DNA from: Oscillospiraceae bacterium
GTDB lineage: Bacteria > Bacillota > Clostridia > Oscillospirales > Ruminococcaceae
Assembly (NCBI GenBank): GCA_021769725.1
Contig: JAETSI010000001.1
Span: forward strand, 167,340 to 231,339
DNA: 64,000 nucleotides
Direction: 5' to 3'
Within the stretch, counting starts at the first letter, position 1. Each line of letters opens with the position of its first letter. This document shows, in pieces, positions 23,623-49,957 of the stretch. Below the pieces are notes generated by a model that was given only the letters and a program-made list of their open reading frames with translations, searched no databases and had not been told where the DNA came from. The position numbers and the translations under genes were made by a program.

Positions 23623-24477
23623 ATGGAAGCAATAAGCAAAACAGGAAATATATCGAAACGGATAATCTGCACTCCAAGTCCGTCGGCGAAAAACAGCTTT
23701 TTTTACGTTCAGGAAACGGGATGCCTTGCGGCAGGAGATACGGCGGCAGCGTACAGGAAGGATCTGGAATCCTTTCTGTTTGCCGCTGTTACAAAGGGCA
23801 GGGGAGAACTGAATTTTGGCAGAGAGACGTACACGGTATCAAGCGGAGAATGTTTTTTTATTGACTGCTGGCTGCCGCATTATTATAAAAGTTCCGAGGA
23901 TGAACCGTGGGAGCTGCTCTGGGTCTATTTCAACGGCGCCACATCACGGCAGTATTATGATTTTTTTCTGTCGCAGTCAAAGAATGTGTTCCGGCTTTCT
24001 TCATTTGAAAGGGCAGTATCGGCGATAACAAGGATAATTGAGGTCAATGAAGAAAAAAATCCTAACGGCGAGATACTATCCTCCAAGTATATTATGGATC
24101 TTATGACGCTTGCTCTTATGGTGAACGCCGACGGCGAAAGGTATGACTCGGCTCTGAAAAATAAGCTGATGTCGGTACATAATTATATAAACGATCATTT
24201 CAGTGAGGAGATGTCGCTGGAGATGCTGTCTGCCAAGTTCTATATCAGTAAATTTTACCTTACAAGGGAATATAAGCGGATATATGGAATGACGATCTTT
24301 CAGCATATCATTACAGCAAGAATAAATTACGGAAAGAAACTGCTGAGATTTTCGGATAAATCAATCGAAGATATAGCTCATCTTTGCGGATTTAACGATC
24401 AGAGCTATTTTGCAAGACAGTTCAAAAAGTCCGAGAATATAACGTGTTTTGCATACAGAAAAATGTGGATGGAATAA
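23623..24477 (+). CDS. AraC-family transcriptional regulator
   Basis: 284 residues. N-terminal cupin-like sensor (about 35-110, with GRGELNFGRETYTVSSGECFFI and LPHYYKSSEDEPWELLWVYFNG), which is typical of sugar-responsive AraC regulators of Firmicutes. C-terminal double helix-turn-helix (about 185-284) with MSLEMLSAKFYISKFYLTREYKRIYGMTIFQHI and the second motif SIEDIAHLCGFNDQSYFARQFKKSENITCFAYRK. It would activate a promoter in response to an unidentified ligand. No transporter or glycosidase lies next to it, so the target is unclear. Confidence 0.92.
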   Translation: MEAISKTGNISKRIICTPSPSAKNSFFYVQETGCLAAGDTAAAYRKDLESFLFAAVTKGRGELNFGRETYTVSSGECFFIDCWLPHYYKSSEDEPWELLWVYFNGATSRQYYDFFLSQSKNVFRLSSFERAVSAITRIIEVNEEKNPNGEILSSKYIMDLMTLALMVNADGERYDSALKNKLMSVHNYINDHFSEEMSLEMLSAKFYISKFYLTREYKRIYGMTIFQHIITARINYGKKLLRFSDKSIEDIAHLCGFNDQSYFARQFKKSENITCFAYRKMWME

Positions 24478-24529: not shown

Positions 24530-24534
24530 AAAAA

Positions 24535-24876
24535 TGACCAGACCGATAAGCCGGGTTCTGTCGAGTGCGGTAATTTATCTACTCCTGTCGTTGCCGGCAG
24601 GCTCAAGCCGCCATTACTTTATATCCGCCGGACAGACGTTAAGATATAAAGCACCAATAGACGTTGCATCGGATAGGGTTTACATAGCAGTACAGTCTCC
24701 TGTACCCTGGTGAGCTCTTACCTCGCCTTTCCACCATCACCTCACGAAGAGGCAGTATATCTCTGTTGCACTTGCCCTAAGGTCGCCCTCGGCTGCCGTT
24801 AGCAGTTATCCTGTCCTGTGATGCCCGGACTTTCCTCATAAACTAAAACGTTTCCGCTACCGCATAGTCTGCTCAT
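24535..24876 (-). ncRNA. rnpB: RNase P RNA, bacterial class A
   Basis: Read on the minus strand, it contains the conserved 5' region GAGGAAAGTCCGGGC, the GGGCGACC/AGGGCAAGTGCAACAGAGA block, GGTGGAAAGGCGAGGTAAGAGCTCACC and the 3' end block ACAGAACCCGGCTTATCGGTC. These are the universally conserved regions of bacterial RNase P RNA. Length about 340 nt is normal. It has a perfect promoter upstream and a terminator downstream. Confidence 0.97.
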
Positions 24877-24882
24877 AATAGT

Positions 24883-24911
24883 ATTATAACATTTTATTTT
24901 TTTTTTGTCAA
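24883..24911 (-). promoter_or_regulatory. Promoter of rnpB
   Basis: Minus strand TTGACA (24906-24911), 17-base spacer, TATAAT (24883-24888), just upstream of the RNA 5' end. Confidence 0.9.
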
Positions 24912-24919
24912 GAAAAATA

Positions 24920-24948
24920 TTGACAAATTGTATTGTTTGTGTTATAAT
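24920..24948 (+). promoter_or_regulatory. Promoter of the polyamine operon
   Basis: TTGACA at 24920-24925, 17-base spacer, TATAAT at 24943-24948. It is back-to-back with the rnpB promoter, with only eight bases between the two -35 boxes. Transcription should begin near 24955. Confidence 0.92.
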
Positions 24949-24954
24949 AATATA

Positions 24955-25230
24955 AACTGCAAAAGAAGCGATTGTTTCAGAGCATGATTTTTGACCACCC
25001 CACATGGGGTCGATGCCATACGGACAGCTGGTCAAATGCCGACTGCCGGATCTCCGGCTGGCAACTTCTGTTGCCTTATTGAATTTGTTTTATGAGTTTT
25101 TCTCAGCTTGTGAAAGGTCAATAAGAGTAGTAAAAGGTATCTTTGCTCAAGGTGGATTTTTCTGCCCTATGCTTCTCATCTTCTTGCTTTTGTCACTCAC
25201 GTACAGGCTGAAAAAGTCTGTACGTTTTTT
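24955..25230 (+). promoter_or_regulatory. Structured leader RNA with terminator upstream of speD; candidate riboswitch or attenuator
   Basis: A roughly 275-nt untranslated leader. Stems readable by eye: TTGACCA (24991-24997) with TGGTCAA (25029-25035) enclosing a CCCC/GGGG hairpin; TGCC..GCCGGA with TCCGGC..GGCA (25037-25063); CTTATTGA (25075-25082) with TCAATAAG (25118-25125) enclosing a smaller hairpin. At the end is an intrinsic terminator, ACGTACAG/CTGTACGT then six T (25199-25230), six bases before the speD ribosome-binding site. A terminator inside the 5' leader implies conditional read-through. I do not recognise any named riboswitch consensus. Confidence 0.7.
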
Positions 25231-25249
25231 ATTTCTGAGGTGTATTTTT

Positions 25250-26032
25250 ATGGAAAACAAGCTTAAGCTTTACGGCTTTAATAATCTTACCAAATCCCTT
25301 AGTTTCAACATTTATGATGTATGCTATGCCCGCACTCCCAAGGCACAGCTTGATTATATCGCTTACGTTGACGAAGTGTATAATTCCGAAAGGATCACCG
25401 ATATTATGACGCATCTTACCGAAATGATAGGGGCACAGGTGCTGAGTATTTCCCGACAGGATTACGATCCGCAGGGAGCTTCGGCAACATTCCTTATCGC
25501 TGACGATACCATGATCCCAGCCGGCGGATCTGAAACAGTCGCTCATCTCGACAAAAGTCACGTCACTGTGCATACCTATCCGGAATATCATCCGGATACA
25601 AGCATCGCCACTTTCCGGGTGGATATTGACGTCGCTACCTGCGGCAAAATAACCCCTCTTACAGCTCTTGATTACCTTATAGGCAGCTTTGATTCCGACA
25701 TAATTACAATGGATTACCGTGTTCGTGGGTTCACACGAAATCTCAGCGGCAAAAAACTGTTTATAGACCACGATATAACTTCGATCCAGAATTACATAAA
25801 CGAAGCTACACTTGATAAATACGATGCAGTTGACATAAACGTTTATCAGGCAAATATGTTTCATACAAAAATGCTCATAAAGGAAATAGAACTTCAGAAT
25901 TACCTGTTCAACACAGATGTCCGGGAATTGTCCCCCAGAAGCCGCCTTGATATCACAAATGCGCTGCGCAGAGAAATGATCGAAATTTTCAGCGGAAGGA
26001 ACGTGTTCGGAAATGGCTCTTTATCAGACTGA
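25250..26032 (+). CDS. speD: S-adenosylmethionine decarboxylase proenzyme, E. coli type
   Basis: 260 residues from the ATG at 25250 (GAGGTG seven bases upstream); the frame extends into the leader but that part is rejected. It makes decarboxylated SAM, the aminopropyl donor for spermidine. The self-cleavage site is in [14 protein letters not shown], where the Ser becomes the pyruvoyl cofactor. The downstream [34 protein letters not shown] block is the E. coli-type large-subunit signature, unlike the short B. subtilis type. It overlaps the decarboxylase gene by 20 bases. Confidence 0.95.
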
Positions 26033-27458
26033 CGCCCCTATTTATGAGGCTTTACGGAAATTAAGACGGATGAGGGTAGTCCCATTTGATGTTCCCGGTC
26101 ATAAACGTGGACGGGGCAACATGGAATTAACGGAGTTCCTCGGCGAGGACTGCGTGAACGTGGATGTAAACTCAATGAAACCTTTGGACAACCTCTGTCA
26201 TCCCGTCTCGGTCATACGGGATGCGGAAACGCTCGCCGCACAAGCCTTTCATGCCGCCAACGCATTTTTTATGGTAGGCGGAACAACTTCCGCTGTCCAG
26301 AGCATGATAATGTACGCCTGCAAAAGCGGAGACAAGATAATTATGCCCCGAAATGTTCACCGGAGCGCAATAAACGCTCTTATTCTTACAGGAGCAGTAC
26401 CGGTTTACGTAAATCCTGACGTCAACGCTCAGCTCGGCATTGCTCTTGGAATGTCGCTCGCCCAGGTAGAACAGGCAATACGTGAAAATCCGGACGCCAA
26501 GGCGATAATGGTCAACAACCCGACGTATTACGGCATCTGTTCTGATCTCCGGCGTATTACCAGACTTGCTCATGAGCACAATATGCTGGTGCTTGTTGAT
26601 GAGGCTCACGGCACTCACTTCTATTTCGGTGAGAATTTCCCCATTTCCGCCATGGACGCCGGAGCTGATATTGCCTCGGTAAGTATGCACAAATCGGGCG
26701 GAAGCCTCACGCAAAGTTCATTCCTTATTATGGGTAAAGCGGTAAATGCCGATTATATGCGGCAGATCATCAATCTGACACAGACCACCAGCGCATCCTA
26801 TCTGCTGCTGTCAAGCCTTGATATATCAAGAAAAAGACTGGCTCTTATGGGACGTGAGATTTTCGCCGAAACCGTTGAAATGGCGGAATATGCACGTTCC
26901 GAGATCAACAGCATAGGCGGTTATTATGCCTATTCCAAAGAACTTATCAACGGTGACAGTATCTTTGATTTTGACGTTTCAAAGCTGAGCGTCTATACAC
27001 TGCCTATCGGTCTTGCCGGCATTGAAGTATATGATTATCTTCGTGACGAATACGATATACAGATAGAGTTCGGGGATATCGGCAATATCCTTGCGTATAT
27101 CTCAGTAGGCGACAGGAAACGTGACATAGAACGTCTGATAAGCGCTCTTTCGGAGATAAAACGGCGGTTCGGCAGATCAGGCGCCGATATGCTTACGCAG
27201 GAATACATCTCCCCCGTCATTGCCGAAACCCCAAGAACGGCTTTCTATGCCGATAAGATCTCGCTGCCCCTGGATGAAGCCCCCGGTCACGTGTGTACGG
27301 AATTCGTTATGTGCTATCCGCCGGGAATCCCCATTCTTGCCCCCGGAGAGCTTATCACAAAAGAGATCGTTGATTATATAGGATACGCCAAGGAAAAAGG
27401 ATGTCAGCTTACGGGCACGGAGGATATCAATATTGAACGGCTCAATGTTCTTGCATGA
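26013..27458 (+). CDS. speA: Arginine (Orn/Lys/Arg group) decarboxylase, fold-type I
   Basis: 481 residues, the short Bacillus-like form without the receiver-like wing domain of the E. coli enzymes. PLP-site evidence: PGHKRGRG near the N-terminus, [20 protein letters not shown], and the Schiff-base Lys in [15 protein letters not shown]. The C-terminal block includes [13 protein letters not shown]. It would decarboxylate arginine to agmatine; arginine rather than lysine is inferred from the agmatinase gene in the same operon. It overlaps speD and is followed 18 bases later by speE. Confidence 0.9.
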
Positions 27459-27476: not shown

Positions 27477-28328
27477 ATGGAATTATGGTTTACAGAGAGA
27501 CATACCCCAAATGTTAAATTTTCGATAAAAGTGGATCGCCAGCTGTACAGCGGAAACAGCGAATTCCAGCGGATAGATGTGTTTGATTCAAAGGAATTCG
27601 GCAGATTCCTCACCCTTGACGGCTACATGATGCTTACGGAAAAGGACGAATTCATCTATCACGAAATGATAACCCATGTTCCGATGGCGGTGCATCCCGA
27701 CCCGAAAAACATTCTTGTTATCGGTGCAGGAGACGGCGGAGTTATCCGTGAACTCACACGATATCCCGGAATAGAGTCAATCGACCTGGTGGAGATAGAC
27801 GAGCTTGTTATTGAAGTCTGCCGTAAATATCTGCCGTCTACCGCCTGCCGTCTTGACGATGAACGTGTTCATATATTCTGCGAGGACGGAGTGAAATTCA
27901 TACGCAGATGCGAAAATAAATATGATATTATAATTGTTGATTCGACCGATCCGTTCGGGCCGGGTGAAGGTCTTTTTACCAAGGAATTCTACGGAAGCTG
28001 TTCTAAGGCGCTGCGTGAGGACGGCATTATGGTGAATCAGCACGAAAGCCCATTCTACGCCGAAGATGCTGCCGCCATGCAGAGATCGCATAAGCGCATT
28101 GTGGACAGTTTTCCCATAAGCCGTGTATATCAGGCTCATATCCCGACTTATCCGTCCGGGCACTGGCTTTTCGGCTTTGCTTCAAAAAAATGTCATCCTG
28201 TCCATGATCTCAACAGCACCAAATGGAATATGCTCGGTCTGAAAACCGGCTATTATAATACGAAACTTCACGCCGGAGCTTTCTCACTGCCGAATTATGT
28301 AGAAGAAATGCTCAGGGACGTCGAGTAA
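27477..28328 (+). CDS. speE: Spermidine synthase (polyamine aminopropyltransferase)
   Basis: 283 residues. It has the N-terminal beta domain (MELWFTERHTPNVKFSIKV, typical of the family) and the Rossmann core with the dcSAM motif VIGAGDGGVIRELTRY. VEIDELVIEVCRKYLP and the catalytic/putrescine-binding DSTDPFGPGEGLFTKEFY segment are also present. It transfers an aminopropyl group from decarboxylated SAM to putrescine. GGAG ribosome-binding site at proper distance. Repeat copy 3 begins seven bases after its stop. Confidence 0.95.
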   Translation: MELWFTERHTPNVKFSIKVDRQLYSGNSEFQRIDVFDSKEFGRFLTLDGYMMLTEKDEFIYHEMITHVPMAVHPDPKNILVIGAGDGGVIRELTRYPGIESIDLVEIDELVIEVCRKYLPSTACRLDDERVHIFCEDGVKFIRRCENKYDIIIVDSTDPFGPGEGLFTKEFYGSCSKALREDGIMVNQHESPFYAEDAAAMQRSHKRIVDSFPISRVYQAHIPTYPSGHWLFGFASKKCHPVHDLNSTKWNMLGLKTGYYNTKLHAGAFSLPNYVEEMLRDVE

Positions 28329-28543: not shown

Positions 28544-29395
28544 ATGCTTTCTAAAAATGTATCAACATTTATCGCCTGCGACAGCGAATACAATGAAGCC
28601 GGGATAGTTCTTTTCGGCGTCGGATTCGACAGCACCACAAGCTTTCGTCCGGGAGCACGTTTCGGCCCTTCCGCCATAAGAAACGAAAGCTTCGGAATAG
28701 AGACATACAGCCCCTACCAGGACAAGGATATGACCGATTACCGCTTCTTCGACAGCGGCGACATTGATGTTACTTTCGGCGGCGTAAGGCGTACCATAGC
28801 CGATATTGCCATGAGAACCGATATGATCCTTACTGACGGAAAGCTGCCATTCATGATCGGCGGAGAGCATCTTGTAACGCTTGGCTCTGTTATGGCTGCA
28901 AAGGAAAAAATCGACGATCTTTATATCATCCATTTTGACGCTCATGCCGACCTCCGAGACGACTACCTCGGTCAGCAGCTTTCCCACGCCTGTGTGCTCA
29001 GACGCTGCCATGAACTTGTGGGCGACGGACATATTTTCCAGTTCGGCATCAGGAGCGGCGACCGTGAGGAATTCCGCTTTGCTGGAGAACATACGAAAAT
29101 GCACAGATTCAGCTTTGACGGACTTGAAGAAACGGTGAAAGATCTTAAAGGAAAAAATGTCTATTTTACCCTTGATCTCGACGTGCTTGACCCTTCGGTC
29201 TTTCCGGGAACAGGCACTCCGGAGGCAGGCGGCGTTACATTCGATGAACTTAGAAAAGCCGTTACCCTCGTTTGCAGCAGCCTGAATATCAAGGGCTGCG
29301 ACGTATGCGAACTCAGTCCCGTTTACGATCAGAGCGGCGTTTCCACCGCCGCTGCCTGTAAGATCATCCGTGAAATGCTTCTGGCTCTTTCATAA
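28544..29395 (+). CDS. speB: Agmatinase (ureohydrolase family)
   Basis: 283 residues. The manganese ligands are in GGEHLVT (His), HFDAHADLRDDY (Asp-His-Asp) and TLDLDVLDPSVFPGTGTPE (Asp-Asp), the complete ureohydrolase set. It hydrolyses agmatine to putrescine and urea. SRPG-like STTSFRPGARFGPSAIR near residue 30 is the standard N-terminal block. It has AAAGGAG upstream and follows repeat copy 3; the next gene starts 14 bases later. Confidence 0.94.
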   Translation: MLSKNVSTFIACDSEYNEAGIVLFGVGFDSTTSFRPGARFGPSAIRNESFGIETYSPYQDKDMTDYRFFDSGDIDVTFGGVRRTIADIAMRTDMILTDGKLPFMIGGEHLVTLGSVMAAKEKIDDLYIIHFDAHADLRDDYLGQQLSHACVLRRCHELVGDGHIFQFGIRSGDREEFRFAGEHTKMHRFSFDGLEETVKDLKGKNVYFTLDLDVLDPSVFPGTGTPEAGGVTFDELRKAVTLVCSSLNIKGCDVCELSPVYDQSGVSTAAACKIIREMLLALS

Positions 29396-29409: not shown

Positions 29410-29958
29410 ATGTATACATACAGAAAAAGCATTCCGCTGAATACTCCGGGTGGAAGAAAAACTGCAAGGCTGATACTCACTATAACTCTTTTGACTATAT
29501 CCGTGGTATTTATTGCTGTCGGAACTATTATTTTTAAGGTGAACAAATCACAGCAAGATAAATGTACGGAGAAAGTTACTGCCAAGGTAGTTGATCTTCT
29601 GGAGCAAACTAATACTTCCAGTCACAAAGGCAGACGAAGAACAAGTATTTCTTATCGTCCGGTATTTGAATATATATACAATGATAAAAAATACGTAACG
29701 GAAAGCAATGTTTCTTCAAATCCGCCCGAATACGAGATCGGTGAAACTGTAGATCTGATGATCGACCCTGATGAACCAAGAAAGATTTACGATCCGGACA
29801 GCAAGCTGCTTCGGCTTATGGGATTTATATTCGGCGGCGTCGGTATATTGATGCTGATAATATACATCATCATCATGATCGTTATGAGCAGATTTAATAA
29901 TAATAAAGAAAATCCGGAAAATACAGAGATTGACTATTACGATGAAAATCAATATTAA
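29410..29958 (+). CDS. DUF3592-like membrane protein
   Basis: 182 residues with two transmembrane helices (about 19-43 and 136-160) enclosing a beta-rich domain of about 90 residues (TAKVVDLLEQ, SISYRPVFEYIYNDKKYVTESNVSSNPPEYEIGETVDLMIDPDEPRKI spread over 50-130). This VxVxYDP-type pattern matches DUF3592 proteins, whose role is unknown. The Ser/His/Lys-rich insert and the acidic C-terminal tail are not conserved features I recognise. It sits inside the polyamine operon between speB and the carboxyspermidine dehydrogenase gene with short gaps, so it may act in polyamine handling at the membrane, though that is only context. Confidence 0.75.
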   Translation: MYTYRKSIPLNTPGGRKTARLILTITLLTISVVFIAVGTIIFKVNKSQQDKCTEKVTAKVVDLLEQTNTSSHKGRRRTSISYRPVFEYIYNDKKYVTESNVSSNPPEYEIGETVDLMIDPDEPRKIYDPDSKLLRLMGFIFGGVGILMLIIYIIIMIVMSRFNNNKENPENTEIDYYDENQY

Positions 29959-29976: not shown

Positions 29977-31179
29977 ATGGGAAAATGTATGATAATCGGT
30001 TGCGGCGGCGTAGCCTCTGTTGCAATTCACAAATGCTGTCAGAACAGCGAGGTTTTTGAGGGAATAATGATCGCAAGCCGCACAAAATCCAAATGTGACG
30101 CTCTGAAAGAGAAGCTTCAGCCCACAACAAAAACCGTTATCGAGACGGCTCAGGTCAACGCCGACAATGTTGACGAGCTTATAGCGCTGATCGAAAGCTA
30201 CAGACCTGACGTGGTATTGAATCTTGCTCTCCCCTATCAGGATCTGACAATAATGGACGCTTGTCTAGCCACCGGAACTCACTACGTCGATACTGCTAAC
30301 TACGAACCCCTCGATACTGCCAAATTCGAGTACAAATGGCAGTGGGCTTATCGTGAGCGCTTTGAAAAAGCAGGTATCACCGCACTTCTTGGCAGCGGCT
30401 TTGATCCCGGCGTTACGGGCGTTTTCTCAGCTTATGCAATGAAACATCATTTTGATGAGATCAATTATATTGATATTCTGGACTGCAACGGCGGCGATCA
30501 CGGTTATCCGTTTGCAACCAACTTCAACCCTGAGATCAATATTCGTGAAGTTTCCGCAAAGGGAAGCTATATTGAAAACGGAAAATGGATCGAAACCGAA
30601 CCAATGGAAATAAAACGTGTATATAACTTCAAGGACGTAGGCGAAAAAGATATGTATCTTCTTCACCATGAGGAGCTTGAATCACTGGCGCTCAACATCA
30701 AAGGCATCAAGAGGATACGCTTCTTCATGACATTCGGTCAGAGCTACCTTACACATTTGAAATGCCTTGAAAACGTAGGAATGACATCAATCGAACCTAT
30801 CATGTACGAAGGACGGGAAATCGTTCCGCTCCAGTTCCTTAAAGCAGTTCTCCCTGACCCTGCAAGTCTGGGGCCCAGAACGGTTGGCAAAACCAACATC
30901 GGCTGTATTTTCAGGGGCAAAAAAGACGGAAACGATAAATCCTACTATCTCTATAATATCTGCGATCATCAGGAATGCTACAAGGAGGTAGGCTCTCAGG
31001 CAATCTCCTACACCACGGGTGTTCCGGCAATGATCGGTGCAATGATGATAATGACCGGTAAGTGGAATAAAGCCGGGGTTTACAATATCGAGGAATTTGA
31101 TCCTGATCCTTTCATGGAAGCTCTCAACAAATGGGGACTGCCCTGGGAGGAGGATTTTGATCCCGTACTTGTAGAATAG
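29977..31179 (+). CDS. Carboxynorspermidine/carboxyspermidine dehydrogenase (saccharopine-dehydrogenase-like)
   Basis: 400 residues. N-terminal Rossmann motif MIIGCGGVASVAIHKC, then VLNLALPYQDLTIMDACLATGTHYVDTANYEP, and the C-terminal LGSGFDPGVTGVFSAYA. This full pattern is typical of CANSDH (Lys1 family) rather than true saccharopine dehydrogenase. It condenses aspartate semialdehyde with putrescine or diaminopropane and reduces the product with NADPH. The decarboxylase partner nspC is two genes downstream, which strongly supports the call. AAGGAG precedes the ATG. Confidence 0.92.
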   Translation: MGKCMIIGCGGVASVAIHKCCQNSEVFEGIMIASRTKSKCDALKEKLQPTTKTVIETAQVNADNVDELIALIESYRPDVVLNLALPYQDLTIMDACLATGTHYVDTANYEPLDTAKFEYKWQWAYRERFEKAGITALLGSGFDPGVTGVFSAYAMKHHFDEINYIDILDCNGGDHGYPFATNFNPEINIREVSAKGSYIENGKWIETEPMEIKRVYNFKDVGEKDMYLLHHEELESLALNIKGIKRIRFFMTFGQSYLTHLKCLENVGMTSIEPIMYEGREIVPLQFLKAVLPDPASLGPRTVGKTNIGCIFRGKKDGNDKSYYLYNICDHQECYKEVGSQAISYTTGVPAMIGAMMIMTGKWNKAGVYNIEEFDPDPFMEALNKWGLPWEEDFDPVLVE

Positions 31180-31192
31180 AGGGGGAAATTAT

Positions 31193-32710
31193 TTGAGTTT
31201 CAGTGACCTTTTTAAAAAAAATTGCCAATCGCCGCCCATAAACTACTGTGAAAATTTCATATCCGGTTATCACGAATTTTTCTGTGCTGCATTCAATACT
31301 TTAAATGACCTTAAAACTGACAAAATCGGAGAGTTTGCAGCTCAATGCCGTATACTTACAACTGGAAATATACAGGAAATACGAAATCGTTTTTATCGTC
31401 TGCGTCATGTTATGTATGGATATTACTACGGTACAACATACGCTAAACTTAATTTCAAACTATTGAAACAGTATAGCGGCAATGATTTTCCGGCGCTCCT
31501 TGCAGCCGGAATGATGCATCGAAGCGGTTATTGCCGTGAAAAATGCACCGTCCTTATAGCAGATTATCCGGAGTATATCTGCCTGACTCTGCATGGCTTC
31601 AATGACTGGGTACCCCAGGTGCGCAGTGCGTCGGAAGAAAGCTTTTTCAATATGCTACCGAAGGCTGATTTAATTAACGTAATTATGGCATACAGCGAAG
31701 CCGACCGTATCATCAGAAGCAATCGTTTCAGCAAGAAACAGTTTGACAGAGCACGCAGTCAGCTGGCAGAAAGAATAAGCCGGGAGAGCGGCACAGATGT
31801 TATTTCCGCAATTAAAACTGTCATTCAGCCCAATGACCGATGTAATCTGTATTTTCCGCTGCTCCGGGACAGGCTGATATCGCCGGAAACAGCAGAATCA
31901 ATTATCAAAACCGAAAAAGCGGAGATAGCAGACAGACTTGCTCCGCTTGTGATTGAAAAGTATGATCTGCCAGTTGAGCATCTTATTGAAATGACAGAAA
32001 GCCGCTTTCCGAGAATACGATATGTCGCTGCAAGACGGCTCTATGAAAAATCCGGGCTGTGGCAGAATGCCGACAGGCTTCTATTGGACCAAAGCGCTCC
32101 TGTGCGTGATCTAATGCAGTATTATTTTGAGAAATCCGGAAATATCAGTCTGAAAGACTTTTACAGGGAAAATTTCCCAAACCCGGAAGCAATAAAAGGC
32201 TTTGGTGAATGCGGTGCATTTGCAGACGAAATAGAAATAAGATCTTTTGCTTATTCGGATAATGCAAAAATTGCCGCCTCAGCTATTTATTCTCTTTGCA
32301 AGCTTACCTCTGACAGCAATGACGATTTGTACTACGAAATGCTAAGCGACCCTCGAAATCAGGTTTCAAAAGCAGCTTTTCTGGCTATGCAGTGCTGTGG
32401 AAATGTAGTCCCGGAACAAGTGTACATTGATATTCTTAAAAATCGTGACAACGAACTCCGAACCAGACGTCTGGTAAAGCTTCTGTGCCGAAACACCGGA
32501 AGCCTCTGGAACGCAATGCCATATTTTATACGTCTCTATTATGCCCCGGAGGAGTATATACGTCTCCCGGTACGCATGGCGATATCCAAAAGATCCTATA
32601 TATATCTTTCAACAAGGGAGTACGCCGCAGAGATCAGAAGAGCAATAGAGGAAAACCCGCTTCCTGAAAATCTGACGGCACAAATTTACAGAGAGATCGG
32701 AGTGATCTGA
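31193..32710 (+). CDS. HEAT/armadillo-like helical repeat protein in the polyamine operon
   Basis: 505 residues with a TTG start at 31193 and GAGGGGG upstream. The protein is almost all alpha-helical with repeated pairs of amphipathic helices. Examples are FPALLAAGMMHRSGYCREKCTVL, then VPQVRSASEESFFNML, FPRIRYVAARRLYEKSG, APVRDLMQYYFEKSG and NQVSKAAFLAMQCCGN, matching HEAT-repeat spacing of about 35-40. Such scaffolds bind proteins or nucleic acids. No enzymatic motif is visible. It overlaps the start of nspC (TGATG), so it is coupled to polyamine synthesis genes, but its role there is unknown. Confidence 0.75.
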   Translation: MSFSDLFKKNCQSPPINYCENFISGYHEFFCAAFNTLNDLKTDKIGEFAAQCRILTTGNIQEIRNRFYRLRHVMYGYYYGTTYAKLNFKLLKQYSGNDFPALLAAGMMHRSGYCREKCTVLIADYPEYICLTLHGFNDWVPQVRSASEESFFNMLPKADLINVIMAYSEADRIIRSNRFSKKQFDRARSQLAERISRESGTDVISAIKTVIQPNDRCNLYFPLLRDRLISPETAESIIKTEKAEIADRLAPLVIEKYDLPVEHLIEMTESRFPRIRYVAARRLYEKSGLWQNADRLLLDQSAPVRDLMQYYFEKSGNISLKDFYRENFPNPEAIKGFGECGAFADEIEIRSFAYSDNAKIAASAIYSLCKLTSDSNDDLYYEMLSDPRNQVSKAAFLAMQCCGNVVPEQVYIDILKNRDNELRTRRLVKLLCRNTGSLWNAMPYFIRLYYAPEEYIRLPVRMAISKRSYIYLSTREYAAEIRRAIEENPLPENLTAQIYREIGVI

Positions 32711-33837
32711 TGCAGAAGTTTTCATCCTTAAAAACACCGTGCTACGTCATCGACGAAGCACGGCTCATACACAACCTTGAAATACTTCACGGAATGGAAG
32801 AACGCACCGGAGCAAAGATACTCCTTGCCCAGAAAGCCTTTTCATGTTATCATCTTTATTCCACGATAGGAAAGTATATTTCAGGAACAGCTTGCAGCGG
32901 TCTTTTTGAGGCACGTCTCGGATATGAAGAAATGGGAAAGGAAAATCATGTATTTTCCGCCGCCTACCGTGAGGAAGAAATCGGTGAGATAATCAGCTGC
33001 TGCGGTCATATTATCTTCAATTCCTTTGGTCAGCTTGGCAGATATCGCAATCGTGTTCTGGCTGCCGGGAAAAAAATCGGACTGCGTATAAATCCGGAAT
33101 GCTCCACCCAGAATGGACATGAGATCTATGACCCGTGCTCTCCGAAATCTCGTCTTGGCATCACAGACAAGAACTTCCGGCGCAGCGATCTTTACGGTGT
33201 AACAGGGCTTCACTTCCATACGCTGTGCGAGCAGAATTCGGATGATCTTGAAAAAACTCTGGACGCCGTTGAGGAAAAATTCGGCGATATACTGCCCCGA
33301 ATGGAGTGGATCAATTTCGGTGGAGGTCACCACATCACCAGGGAAGATTACGACATCCCCCGACTGGAACGGTGCATAAAGAGGATGCAGGAAAAATACG
33401 GGCTGGAGGTATATCTTGAACCTGGAGAGGCTGTTGCCTTGAATGCCGGATTTCTTGTGACAGAAGTCCTTGACATTACCGAAAACGATATTCCTATTGC
33501 GATTCTGGACACTTCGGCAGCCTGTCATATGCCTGACGTTCTTGAAATGCCCTACAGACCGCCGCTTTTAAACTCCGGAATGCCGTCTGAGAAGTCATAC
33601 ACCTACCGGCTTGGATCACAGACCTGCCTTGCAGGAGATGTTATCGGAGAATATTCCTTTGACACTCCGCTGCATATCGGCAGCAGACTTGTTTTCGGGG
33701 ATATGGCGATTTATTCTATGGTGAAAAACAACACCTTCAACGGAATGCCGCTGCCGGATATCGTTCTGAAAAAAACAGACGGAACACTGGAAATACTAAA
33801 ACAATTCGGGTACAGAGACTTCCGTGAAAGGCTCTGA
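32710..33837 (+). CDS. nspC: Carboxynorspermidine/carboxyspermidine decarboxylase
   Basis: 375 residues, alanine-racemase fold (fold III). The PLP Lys is in KILLAQKAFS near residue 43, the phosphate-binding glycines are in INFGGGHHIT, and the YLEPGEAVALNAGFLV block is present. CLAGDVIGEYSF is the active-site Cys/Asp loop near the C-terminus. It decarboxylates carboxyspermidine (or carboxynorspermidine) to the polyamine. Last gene of the operon; a terminator follows 16 bases later. Its ATG overlaps the stop of the HEAT-like gene. Confidence 0.94.
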   Translation: MQKFSSLKTPCYVIDEARLIHNLEILHGMEERTGAKILLAQKAFSCYHLYSTIGKYISGTACSGLFEARLGYEEMGKENHVFSAAYREEEIGEIISCCGHIIFNSFGQLGRYRNRVLAAGKKIGLRINPECSTQNGHEIYDPCSPKSRLGITDKNFRRSDLYGVTGLHFHTLCEQNSDDLEKTLDAVEEKFGDILPRMEWINFGGGHHITREDYDIPRLERCIKRMQEKYGLEVYLEPGEAVALNAGFLVTEVLDITENDIPIAILDTSAACHMPDVLEMPYRPPLLNSGMPSEKSYTYRLGSQTCLAGDVIGEYSFDTPLHIGSRLVFGDMAIYSMVKNNTFNGMPLPDIVLKKTDGTLEILKQFGYRDFRERL

Positions 33838-33944: not shown

Positions 33945-34002
33945 TTGACATATACCCTCTACGGGTATATAATTATAATATCTAAAATACCCCGTGAGGG
34001 TA
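33945..34002 (+). promoter_or_regulatory. csoR-copA promoter with two CsoR operators
   Basis: TTGACA (33945-33950) and TATAAT (33968-33973) with a 17-base spacer. The palindrome TACCC-N5-GGGTA occupies the spacer exactly (33953-33967), and a second TACCC-N5-GGGTA lies just downstream (33988-34002). This matches the G-C-rich CsoR operator known from copper-responsive Firmicutes, so apo-CsoR should block both polymerase binding and escape. Confidence 0.9.
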
Positions 34003-34020
34003 TATAATCGGAGGAATAAT

Positions 34021-34332
34021 ATGCATGATAAAACTTCGTCAGAATGCTGCTGCCGGCACAAGGATACACCGAGAAGCGAACAGACGCTCAGGCAGCTGCG
34101 CAACCGCATAAACCGTATTGTCGGACAGCTGAACGGAATACAGAAAATGCTCGACGAAAACCGATACTGCGGCGATATTCTTACACAGATCGCTGCGGCA
34201 GAAAGCGCACTGCAAAGCGTGGGATATATCGTCTTGCAGGAACATATGCAGACCTGTGTTGCAGAACAGATCAGAATGGGCAACACTGAAATAATGACTG
34301 AAGCCGTCGATCTTATCAAAAAACTTAAATAG
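34021..34332 (+). CDS. csoR: Copper-sensing repressor CsoR
   Basis: 103 residues, all helical, DUF156 family. The Cu(I)-binding triad is present: Cys in NRYCGDIL, then His and Cys in EHMQTC. Also conserved are RLRRIEGQ-like RINRIVGQLNGIQKML and the ECCCRHK N-terminal Cys cluster, which is extra. Start at 34021 has GGAGG seven bases upstream; the frame extends further but without a site. It represses its own operon through the two palindromic boxes and releases DNA when copper binds. Confidence 0.94.
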   Translation: MHDKTSSECCCRHKDTPRSEQTLRQLRNRINRIVGQLNGIQKMLDENRYCGDILTQIAAAESALQSVGYIVLQEHMQTCVAEQIRMGNTEIMTEAVDLIKKLK

Positions 34333-49284: not shown

Positions 49285-49470
49285 TCAGAGATTGCCTTTA
49301 GGCAAAATAAAACCGCCTTGCCGGCATATAGTGGATAAAACCCGCACAAAGCAGGTGGGTAAACGCCCGAATGCTTCACGCTCCCTTCTTCCGCAGGGCG
49401 GGAGGTCTGCAATTCACACACGGAGTCGAATTCCCTTATAAGAAGTGTTGGATCATACAAACTATAATTA
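49285..49470 (-). ncRNA. Candidate structured small RNA (possibly 6S-like)
   Basis: A GC-rich island of about 185 bases inside AT-rich DNA, without a convincing gene on either strand, ending at a strong terminator. On the minus strand it can form CTCCC/GGGAG, CCGCC/GGCGG enclosing a long region, ACCTGC/GCGGGT and TTGCC-TAAA-GGCAA hairpins. Length and terminator would suit 6S RNA, but I cannot confirm the 6S central bubble. Confidence 0.45.
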
Positions 49471-49957
49471 ATCGAACAAGGCAGTAATATTTATTTGTTG
49501 ACTATATTATATCACAAAAAAATCAGAAAATCAATACCTAATTTCTGTTAAAATTTAAAATTTAATATCCGGACACTTTTTTGTAACTTTTTCTTATCAT
49601 AATATATGTTTGATAATGATATTAAAAACAATTTTGTATAAATTATATAAAGAATAGATAAGGAGTTTGTCAATAAAAATATTGACATTTTTAATAAATC
49701 ATGTTATTATTAAATTAACGTAATTAGATAAATCGTATTATTTTACTCTGTGAGAAAGGCAGGATCAGCGAAAAAGGCAAAAGGTATGAAATGAACTGGA
49801 AATTGACGGTAATTATTTCGGAGTAATTCTGAAGTCATGTACTTTTTGATTATTTCAGAAAAAAAATTTGAAAACCCCTTTAAATTTTTCTTGATATGTG
49901 ATATAATAATTGTGTATGAAACTTACATGGTGTCCCGTGTTGAAATAAGGAGAAAAT
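49471..49957. other. Long AT-rich intergenic region upstream of the carboxypeptidase homologue
   Basis: No gene. A TATAAT near 49902-49907 with a poor -35 (TTTAAA) precedes the next gene; TTGACA occurs at about 49681 without a clear partner. Several A/T tracts. No RNA family recognised. Confidence 0.55.

What the first reader, a model, noticed from the sequence alone, without database searches (positions are those of the whole stretch)
24955..25230. Structured, terminator-containing leader of the polyamine operon: possible new riboswitch
A perfect promoter is followed by about 275 nt carrying three clear multi-branched stems and then an intrinsic terminator six bases before the speD ribosome-binding site. 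The genes controlled make SAM decarboxylase, arginine decarboxylase, spermidine synthase, agmatinase and carboxyspermidine enzymes. Conditional termination by a polyamine, SAM or decarboxylated SAM would be a logical control. None of the SAM, guanidine, preQ1 or other classes I can recall fits.
Basis: partly seen in the sequence, partly recalled or inferred. Interest (0 to 1): 0.78.

Follow-up and report, generated by a model that had tools for sequence, protein, structure and literature searches.

The report
Polyamine-gene leader RNA, likely riboswitch
The stretch of RNA before a gut bacterium's polyamine-making genes is a large conserved switch-like structure, found before polyamine genes in many related bacteria, that probably turns those genes off when polyamines are plentiful; part of it was previously catalogued only as a small RNA of unknown job.

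Summary
A consensus promoter, a folded ~275-nt leader and an intrinsic terminator precede speD. The leader belongs to a conserved ~190-nt RNA family of Bacillota.

Rfam models only a 54-nt 5' module (RF02440 "SpF59 sRNA / ldcC RNA"; 55.2 bits). The ~145-nt core downstream has no Rfam match. In a Bacillota sample 25 of 398 genomes have the core, including all 18 with RF02440. All loci examined that had enough downstream DNA precede polyamine synthesis or uptake genes.

Helices covary above controls. The core's CUUGUG strand is complementary to the downstream terminator's 5' arm: top 5% of core windows in 45 of 61 dereplicated leaders, against at most 8 for eight other conserved motifs. In the window this gives nine continuous pairs. 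That is the signature of an antiterminator.

Best reading: a polyamine (probably spermidine) OFF riboswitch, with no sequence match to the published SAM-I-variant spermidine riboswitch. Ligand binding is inferred, not shown. The pneumococcal "sRNA" F59/SN20/srn235/M7 is probably this leader's terminated form; its sequence was not read here.

The parts
24920..24948 (+). sigma-70 promoter of the leader (TTGACA-17-TATAAT)
   Evidence: 12 of 12 consensus; promoter-like sites of 10/12 or better upstream of 75 of 127 related leaders vs 6.2 expected
24978..24988 (+). 5' strand of outer helix P1 (CAGAGCATGAT)
   Evidence: can pair with ATCTTTGCTC at 25139-25148 (read); P1 columns covary in A2, 78-80% of cells paired
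24992..25042 (+). 5' module = RF02440 SpF59/ldcC RNA: TGACC/GGTCA stem, inner hairpin, GC/GC hairpin with CATACGGACA loop, TGCCGA
   Evidence: Rfam 55.2 bits, E 3.5e-7; below the Rfam threshold in 7 of 25 core-bearing genomes, 5 of these 7 without a module-like string
25054..25161 (+). conserved core: P2 (GGCAAC 25060-25065 / GTTGCC 25070-25075), P3 (TTATTGA 25076-25082 / TCAATAA 25118-25124), AAGAGTAGTAAAAG, 3' strand of P1
   Evidence: CM R1 match 68.9 bits, E 8.4e-14 (the window was one of the 67 training rows); no Rfam match for this part above chance
25104..25112 (+). CAGCTTGTG: 3' strand of P5, proposed antiterminator strand
   Evidence: 9 bp with 25202-25210; conserved complementarity
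25199..25231 (+). intrinsic terminator (ACGTACAGGCT..AGTCTGTACGT + T-run)
25250..26032 (+). speD, SAM decarboxylase, first gene of the operon
   Evidence: TIGR03331, 393.8 bits vs cut-off 255.8
26013..27458 (+). speA, arginine/lysine decarboxylase-like
   Evidence: NCBIfam best match LdcC 86.5 bits, below its cut-off of 968
27477..28328 (+). speE, spermidine synthase
   Evidence: NF002010 395.9 vs 260
28544..29395 (+). speB, agmatinase
   Evidence: TIGR01230 286.9 vs 174.3
29977..31179 (+). carboxy(nor)spermidine dehydrogenase (synthase)
   Evidence: NF043000 404 bits, below its cut-off of 800
32710..33837 (+). nspC, carboxy(nor)spermidine decarboxylase
   Evidence: TIGR01047 491.9 vs 409.05

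Best explanation
The leader is a cis-acting transcription attenuator, most likely a polyamine-sensing OFF riboswitch (spermidine the favoured ligand). Shown by sequence: promoter, conserved covarying RNA, terminator, polyamine genes, and a conserved complementarity between the core's P5 3' strand (CUUGUG) and the terminator's 5' arm. Inferred: with little polyamine, CUUGUG pairs with the terminator's 5' arm as it emerges (antiterminator) and polymerase reads through. With much polyamine, the ligand stabilises the closed fold (P1/P3/P5), CUUGUG stays in P5, the terminator forms, and synthesis or uptake genes are shut off. The SpF59 module, absent from some members, may tune or co-sense.
For: Gene context: of 175 parsed loci the first recognised gene is speD (65), speA (48) or the carboxyspermidine dehydrogenase (36); of the 26 others, 19 have a potA-like ABC ATPase and 7 had under 400 nt of DNA (potA of two loci and potBC of one matched NCBIfam polyamine-transporter models). 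All 16 loci missed by my anchor precede speD or speA, and 10 of 10 examined from the presumed Streptococcaceae precede potA-like (8) or speA (2). Covariation on structure-naive MAFFT alignments: core 16 of 31 pairs changed on both sides, 77 such cells vs 30.3 +/- 5.9, 0 of 500 shuffles; full element 26 of 54 pairs, 155 cells vs 48.4 +/- 7.5, 0 of 500; slid partners pair 26-45% vs 88-89%. Antiterminator: CUUGUG window in the top 5% of core windows for the terminator 5' arm in 101 of 136 leaders, mean -8.9 vs -4.5 kcal/mol for shuffled arms; dereplicated 45 of 61, eight other motifs at most 8. The base before CUUG and its partner change together: A with T 71, C 17; G with C 9, T 2. In the window the antiterminator is part of the MFE up to base 25216.
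Against: No ligand, transcript or termination was measured here. P3 hardly varies, so it has no covariation support of its own, and two minimal members (L159, L160) show no P3 5' strand. P7 is paired in only 54-63% of cells on the unfitted alignments. On the core alignment, slides of -1 and -3 exceed the true structure in number of pair types (48 vs 44), and slide -1 in pairs changed on both sides (17 vs 16). 35 of 136 leaders fell outside the top 5% in the complementarity test; 37 of 136 did not enter the A/G x T/C table (34 with no CA[AG]G in the arm), and 17 A-rows carry a mismatching C. By eye the Streptococcus-type leaders pair less clearly. Relatives share ancestry, so counts are not independent. 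The finished terminator is about 10 kcal/mol better than the antiterminator, so switching must be kinetic. A protein that binds the RNA would give the same signature.
Confidence: 0.72

Rival explanations
1. A protein (a polyamine-responsive RNA-binding regulator) reads the leader and sets termination; the RNA is its binding site, not an aptamer.
For: Attenuation anatomy is compatible. An AraC-type regulator gene lies just upstream (window 23623-24477), though AraC proteins bind DNA (recalled).
Against: A ~190-nt element with many conserved bases outside helices is much larger than known antiterminator protein sites (RAT, pyr; recalled). I did not test for a co-conserved regulator gene.
Confidence: 0.13
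2. A trans-acting small RNA, as the literature on pneumococcal F59/SN20/srn235/M7 treats it.
For: Published as a putative sRNA (PMC3395615, PMC12323649 passages), with 'Lung' entered for it in a virulence table of a review (PMC4387999 passage). A terminated leader would be a discrete short RNA.
Against: In the loci read it lies in cis before polyamine genes of four operon types, with a terminator. A trans role in addition is not excluded.
Confidence: 0.05
3. Attenuation through a translated upstream ORF (ribosome stalling).
For: uORF control is proposed for a polyamine gene elsewhere (odc1 motif, PMC8632094 passage). In the window an ATG at 25004 opens a frame that runs into speD.
Against: Ribosome-site-preceded ORFs of 8 or more codons closed within the leader occur in 25 of 127 leaders vs 46.2 expected from Markov shuffles, a depletion. 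Helix lengths and inserts break any common frame.
Confidence: 0.04
4. A riboswitch for another ligand of the pathway (SAM, decarboxylated SAM, arginine, agmatine, putrescine).
For: speD and speA lead many operons.
Against: The RNA also precedes the dehydrogenase of the carboxyspermidine route and potA-type genes, so a product common to all, spermidine or putrescine, fits better. Gene context cannot separate putrescine from spermidine.
Confidence: 0.06

Closest known systems
Rfam RF02440, SpF59_sRNA (ldcC RNA); pneumococcal F59/SN20/srn235/Spd_sr49/M7
   Same: Its 54 positions are the 5' module of this leader (55.2 bits). Two papers place it between SP0915 and SP0916; SP_0916 is an arginine decarboxylase (paper title).
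   Different: Filed as an sRNA; no function found. The model lacks the ~145-nt core, the outer helix, the terminator and the hairpin around CATACGGACA (consensus line), and it does not reach threshold in 7 of 25 core-bearing genomes.
Spermidine riboswitch, SAM-I variant (Trichococcus ilyis ldcC; Salvail et al. 2023, PMC10853860)
   Same: Precedes ldcC/speE/speB/speD-type genes; OFF by transcription termination; senses spermidine (passages).
   Different: A SAM-I aptamer variant; its consensus was drawn from 13 representatives. No SAM-clan match in this leader with E up to 5.
potE motif (WRC-18-1) and odc1 uORF motif (PMC8632094), speF motif (PMC11477304)
   Same: RNA elements before polyamine genes.
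   Different: Other hosts (Veillonella, alphaproteobacteria) and structures by the papers' descriptions; not compared directly here.

Membership tests
RF02440 SpF59_sRNA | score above the curated gathering cut-off | tested here: met
   55.2 vs 37.2 bits, 24992-25042
RF02440 SpF59_sRNA | independent trans-acting small RNA | tested here: inconclusive
   seen in cis within leaders; trans action not testable
SAM-I variant spermidine riboswitch | SAM-I aptamer fold and core sequence | tested here: not met
   no SAM-clan match in 24900-25300 with E up to 5
SAM-I variant spermidine riboswitch | association with polyamine genes and an intrinsic terminator | tested here: met
Riboswitch (any class) | conserved, covarying leader RNA | tested here: met
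Riboswitch (any class) | expression platform with mutually exclusive structures | tested here: met
   complementarity statistics and fold energies; formation in cells not shown
Riboswitch (any class) | direct, selective ligand binding that changes expression | not testable with these tools
   needs in-line probing and transcription assays
T-box and other Rfam leaders | match to the family model | tested here: not met
   no other match at gathering in the window leader; other hits up to E 5 are at E 1.8 or worse; no match with E up to 1 in L032 and L130
uORF attenuator | conserved translated ORF in the leader | tested here: not met
   25 of 127 vs 46.2 expected

The most novel reading that the evidence does not exclude
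A second, structurally unrelated and apparently far more widespread natural polyamine riboswitch class in Bacillota, controlling both polyamine synthesis and import. It is modular, with a 54-nt 5' domain (so far labelled an sRNA) that some members lack and that may be a second sensor, and its P5 strand doubles as the antiterminator.
Probability: 0.6. Interest if true: 0.85.

Novelty: new variant of a known kind. Interest (0 to 1): 0.74.

Why it matters
Polyamine riboswitches were long sought; the convincing class reported in PMC10853860 consists of rare SAM-I variants. A commoner, independent class in gut Clostridia, Paenibacillus, Bacillus, Lactococcus and presumed Streptococcus would show how these bacteria sense polyamines and make that directly testable. 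It would also recast a pneumococcal 'sRNA' with a reported lung phenotype as the leader of a polyamine gene, and correct an Rfam family.

Tried and rejected
Considered and rejected: known Rfam riboswitches, T-box and the SAM-I variant; uORF attenuation; GibS, SpF61 and CRISPR-DR33 weak hits, all at E 1.8 or worse and far below their cut-offs, taken as chance. RNAalifold on the core alignment gave only P3 and an AGAGT/ACTCT alternative, 0 of 17 pairs compensated, because variable hairpins misalign. I then named the helices from one member (L005 for A1, L027 for A2) and counted them on the same unfitted alignments; a structure taken from one row tends to beat the slid versions for that reason too. 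My helix parser searches for complementary arms and is biased, so its pair tables are not used as proof.

Rows dropped: A1 holds 67 of the 69 dereplicated cores (L070 and L080, odd lengths, left out by hand; L021 is misaligned in it). A2 holds 47 leaders that were dereplicated, no longer than 235 nt, and chosen for a parsable SpF59 stem. In the terminator search 2 of 150 leaders had none; 12 of 148 were dropped (4 with the chosen hairpin too far downstream, 8 with the anchor misplaced or cut) before the test of 136. Sixteen of 191 loci lacked my anchor and were left out of the gene count, then checked. L138-L157 largely repeat genomes of L001-L018, so locus counts are not genome counts. L206-L212 were not examined for genes. 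Columns inside TTGTGAA..TCAATAAGAGTNNTAAA are invariant in the named-genome set by construction of the search pattern.

Papers: PMC10853860 read in passages, outline and introduction; PMC3395615, PMC12323649, PMC2887815, PMC8632094, PMC11477304, PMC6296669, PMC7531197, PMC4387999 and PMC8546594 searched for terms only; others seen as listings. Searches listed no paper that I recognised as describing the core. The library lacks most subscription papers and bioRxiv preprints, and two relevant surveys (Weinberg 2017, Greenlee 2018) were not held, so an earlier description cannot be excluded.

Full report
What is in the window. A 12-of-12 sigma-70 promoter (24920-24948) starts a leader that ends in an intrinsic terminator (25199-25225 plus T-run) just before the ribosome site of speD (ATG 25250). 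The operon reads speD, speA-like decarboxylase, speE, speB, a small ORF (29410-29958), carboxy(nor)spermidine dehydrogenase, an unknown 505-aa ORF and nspC. Upstream on the other strand lies class A RNase P RNA (24531-24875). The leader folds better than shuffles (z -4.1; -2.5 without the terminator).

Known part and unknown part. Rfam recognises only 24992-25042, as RF02440 SpF59_sRNA 'ldcC RNA' (55.2 bits). Reading the loci of 18 RF02440-bearing Bacillota genomes (18 of 398) showed that what is conserved is far longer. A core of about 145 nt follows, with hairpin P2 (GGCAAC/GTTGCC), helix P3 (TTATTGAT/GTCAATAA), hairpin P4 inside it, helix P5 (AAGTT/AACTT) carrying hairpins P6 and P7, and the strings AAGAGTAGTAAAAG and TTGCTATATAGACTCT; an outer helix P1 encloses everything. 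A pattern from the core returned at least 119 stretches in named genomes (scan stopped at its limit), among them Paenibacillus, Bacillus, Neobacillus, Heyndrickxia, Acetobacterium, Faecalibacterium, Gemmiger, Ruminococcus, Lachnospiraceae, Pectinatus and Thomasclavelia. Of 18 such loci scanned at gathering thresholds, 8 have RF02440 in the leader and 10 have no Rfam family there; among those 10, L123 and L135 keep a diverged module by eye, while e.g. L019, L031, L032 and L033 plainly lack it. L032 and L130 give no match with E up to 1.

How common. A covariance model of the core (R1; 67 sequences, 31 pairs) finds 25 of 398 Bacillota genomes, among them all 18 RF02440 genomes. Nine of the 25, the window's included, supplied training rows under their locus names. 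Of the 7 core-only genomes, 2 keep a module-like CGGACA string and 5 do not. In the window's own family R1 finds 32 of 119. In a family reached through a recalled Streptococcus tuf primer it finds 18 of 59, against 16 of 59 for RF02440 (15 above its cut-off); 15 genomes have both, one only RF02440, three only the core, and two of those three show a diverged module by eye. Three of these loci, read in full, show the whole element before speA. That this family is Streptococcaceae is my inference; RF02440 does ring in the Lactococcus lactis control.

Structure. Counted on MAFFT alignments made without structure, 16 of 31 core pairs and 26 of 54 full-element pairs have changes on both sides (77 vs 30.3 +/- 5.9 cells; 155 vs 48.4 +/- 7.5; 0 of 500 shuffles each), and sliding partners by 1-3 columns drops pairing from 88-89% to 26-45%. 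Not every measure separates: on the core alignment, slide -1 exceeds the true structure in pairs changed on both sides (17 vs 16) and pair types (48 vs 44), slide -3 in pair types (48), and 4 of 500 shuffles reach the pair-type count. The SpF59 stem itself covaries (UA 28, GC 13, CG 5 at one pair). P3 is almost invariant, so without covariation support though 99% paired; P7 is paired in 54-63% of cells. Two members (L159, L160) are reduced to P1 plus the CUUGUG..AAUAAGAGUAGUAAAAG segment.

Genes. In 175 parsed loci (some genomes fetched twice) the first recognised gene is speD 65, speA 48, carboxyspermidine dehydrogenase 36. Of 26 others, 19 start with a potA-like gene (by reading the translations) and 7 have under 400 nt of DNA. 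NCBIfam matches polyamine-transporter models for potA of L037 and L125 and, below cut-off, potB and potC of L125. The 16 loci my anchor missed all precede speD or speA, and 10 examined from the presumed Streptococcaceae precede potA-like (8) or speA (2). Promoter-like sites of 10/12 or better lie upstream in 75 of 127 leaders vs 6.2 expected, while ribosome-site-preceded small ORFs are fewer than expected (25 vs 46.2).

Mechanism. Terminator-like hairpins were found in 148 of 150 unique leaders with enough DNA. In 136 tested, the core window around CUUGUG is a top-5% partner of the terminator's 5' arm in 101 (best in 57), mean duplex -8.9 against -4.5 kcal/mol for shuffled arms; in 6 it ranks in the worse half. 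On 62 dereplicated leaders it is top-5% in 45 of 61, while eight other conserved motifs reach at most 8. The neighbour base covaries (A:T 71, A:C 17, G:C 9, G:T 2, the remaining 37 of 136 outside this table; Fisher p 7e-5, not corrected for kinship). In the window CAGCUUGUG (25104-25112) matches UACAGGCUG (25202-25210) over nine pairs, where many relatives have ACUUGU/GCAAGU. The nascent RNA up to 25216 holds this antiterminator in its minimum-energy fold; the finished terminator is about 10 kcal/mol better. So CUUGUG can sit in P5 (closed fold, terminator free) or in the antiterminator. A ligand that holds the closed fold turns the operon off, the sensible sign for an end product. That a polyamine is the ligand, and spermidine rather than putrescine, is inference from the gene set.

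Relation to what is known. The published spermidine riboswitch is a SAM-I variant before ldcC and spe genes that terminates transcription with spermidine (PMC10853860; passages and introduction). This leader works like it in outline but is not a member: no SAM-clan match up to E 5. The pneumococcal transcript F59/SN20/srn235/M7 (82, 318 and 327 nt in three papers; between SP0915 and SP0916 in two of them) was guessed in 2010 to be an FMN switch. It was kept in 2025 among 76 candidate sRNAs from which cis-regulators had been excluded, and appears with 'Lung' in a review's virulence table. SP_0916 is an arginine decarboxylase (title of PMC7531197). The likely reading is that these records describe the terminated form of this leader; I did not read the pneumococcal sequence itself.

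Verdict. A real, conserved cis-regulatory RNA of the riboswitch type, with a strong genomic case for transcriptional OFF control by a polyamine, catalogued so far as I could find only as a fragment. Ligand and sign remain to be shown.

Noticed in passing
window 24531-24875 (-): Bacterial RNase P RNA class A (251.3 bits) lies just upstream on the other strand; its likely promoter (12/12, 24911-24883) is back to back with the leader promoter.
   Followed up: no
window 49306-49490 (-): 6S RNA, 70.1 bits.
   Followed up: no
window 31193-32710 (+): 505-aa ORF with no NCBIfam match sits between the carboxyspermidine dehydrogenase and decarboxylase genes; in most relatives where both were seen the two lie about 1.2-1.4 kb apart start to start, i.e. 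adjacent.
   Followed up: no
window 25004-26032 (+): A reading frame from an ATG inside the leader is open and in frame into speD, probably by chance, but it makes the listed ORF too long.
   Followed up: partly
G560 contigs C4 and C12: One genome carries two copies of the element, each with the SpF59 module beside the core.
   Followed up: no
L108 2800-2974, L130 2426-2596: An extra hairpin is inserted between P5 and P6; an insert at the same place is seen in the Streptococcus-type loci L193, L199 and L201.
   Followed up: no
L159 and L160, matches at 1501-1685 and 1501-1661: Apparently minimal members: only the outer helix and the CUUGUG..GUAAAAG segment remain, without P2 or a visible P3 5' strand, yet still before speD.
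   Followed up: partly
window 33994-34332 (+): ORF that looks like a CsoR/RcnR-type metal repressor just after the operon (by eye, not searched).
   Followed up: no
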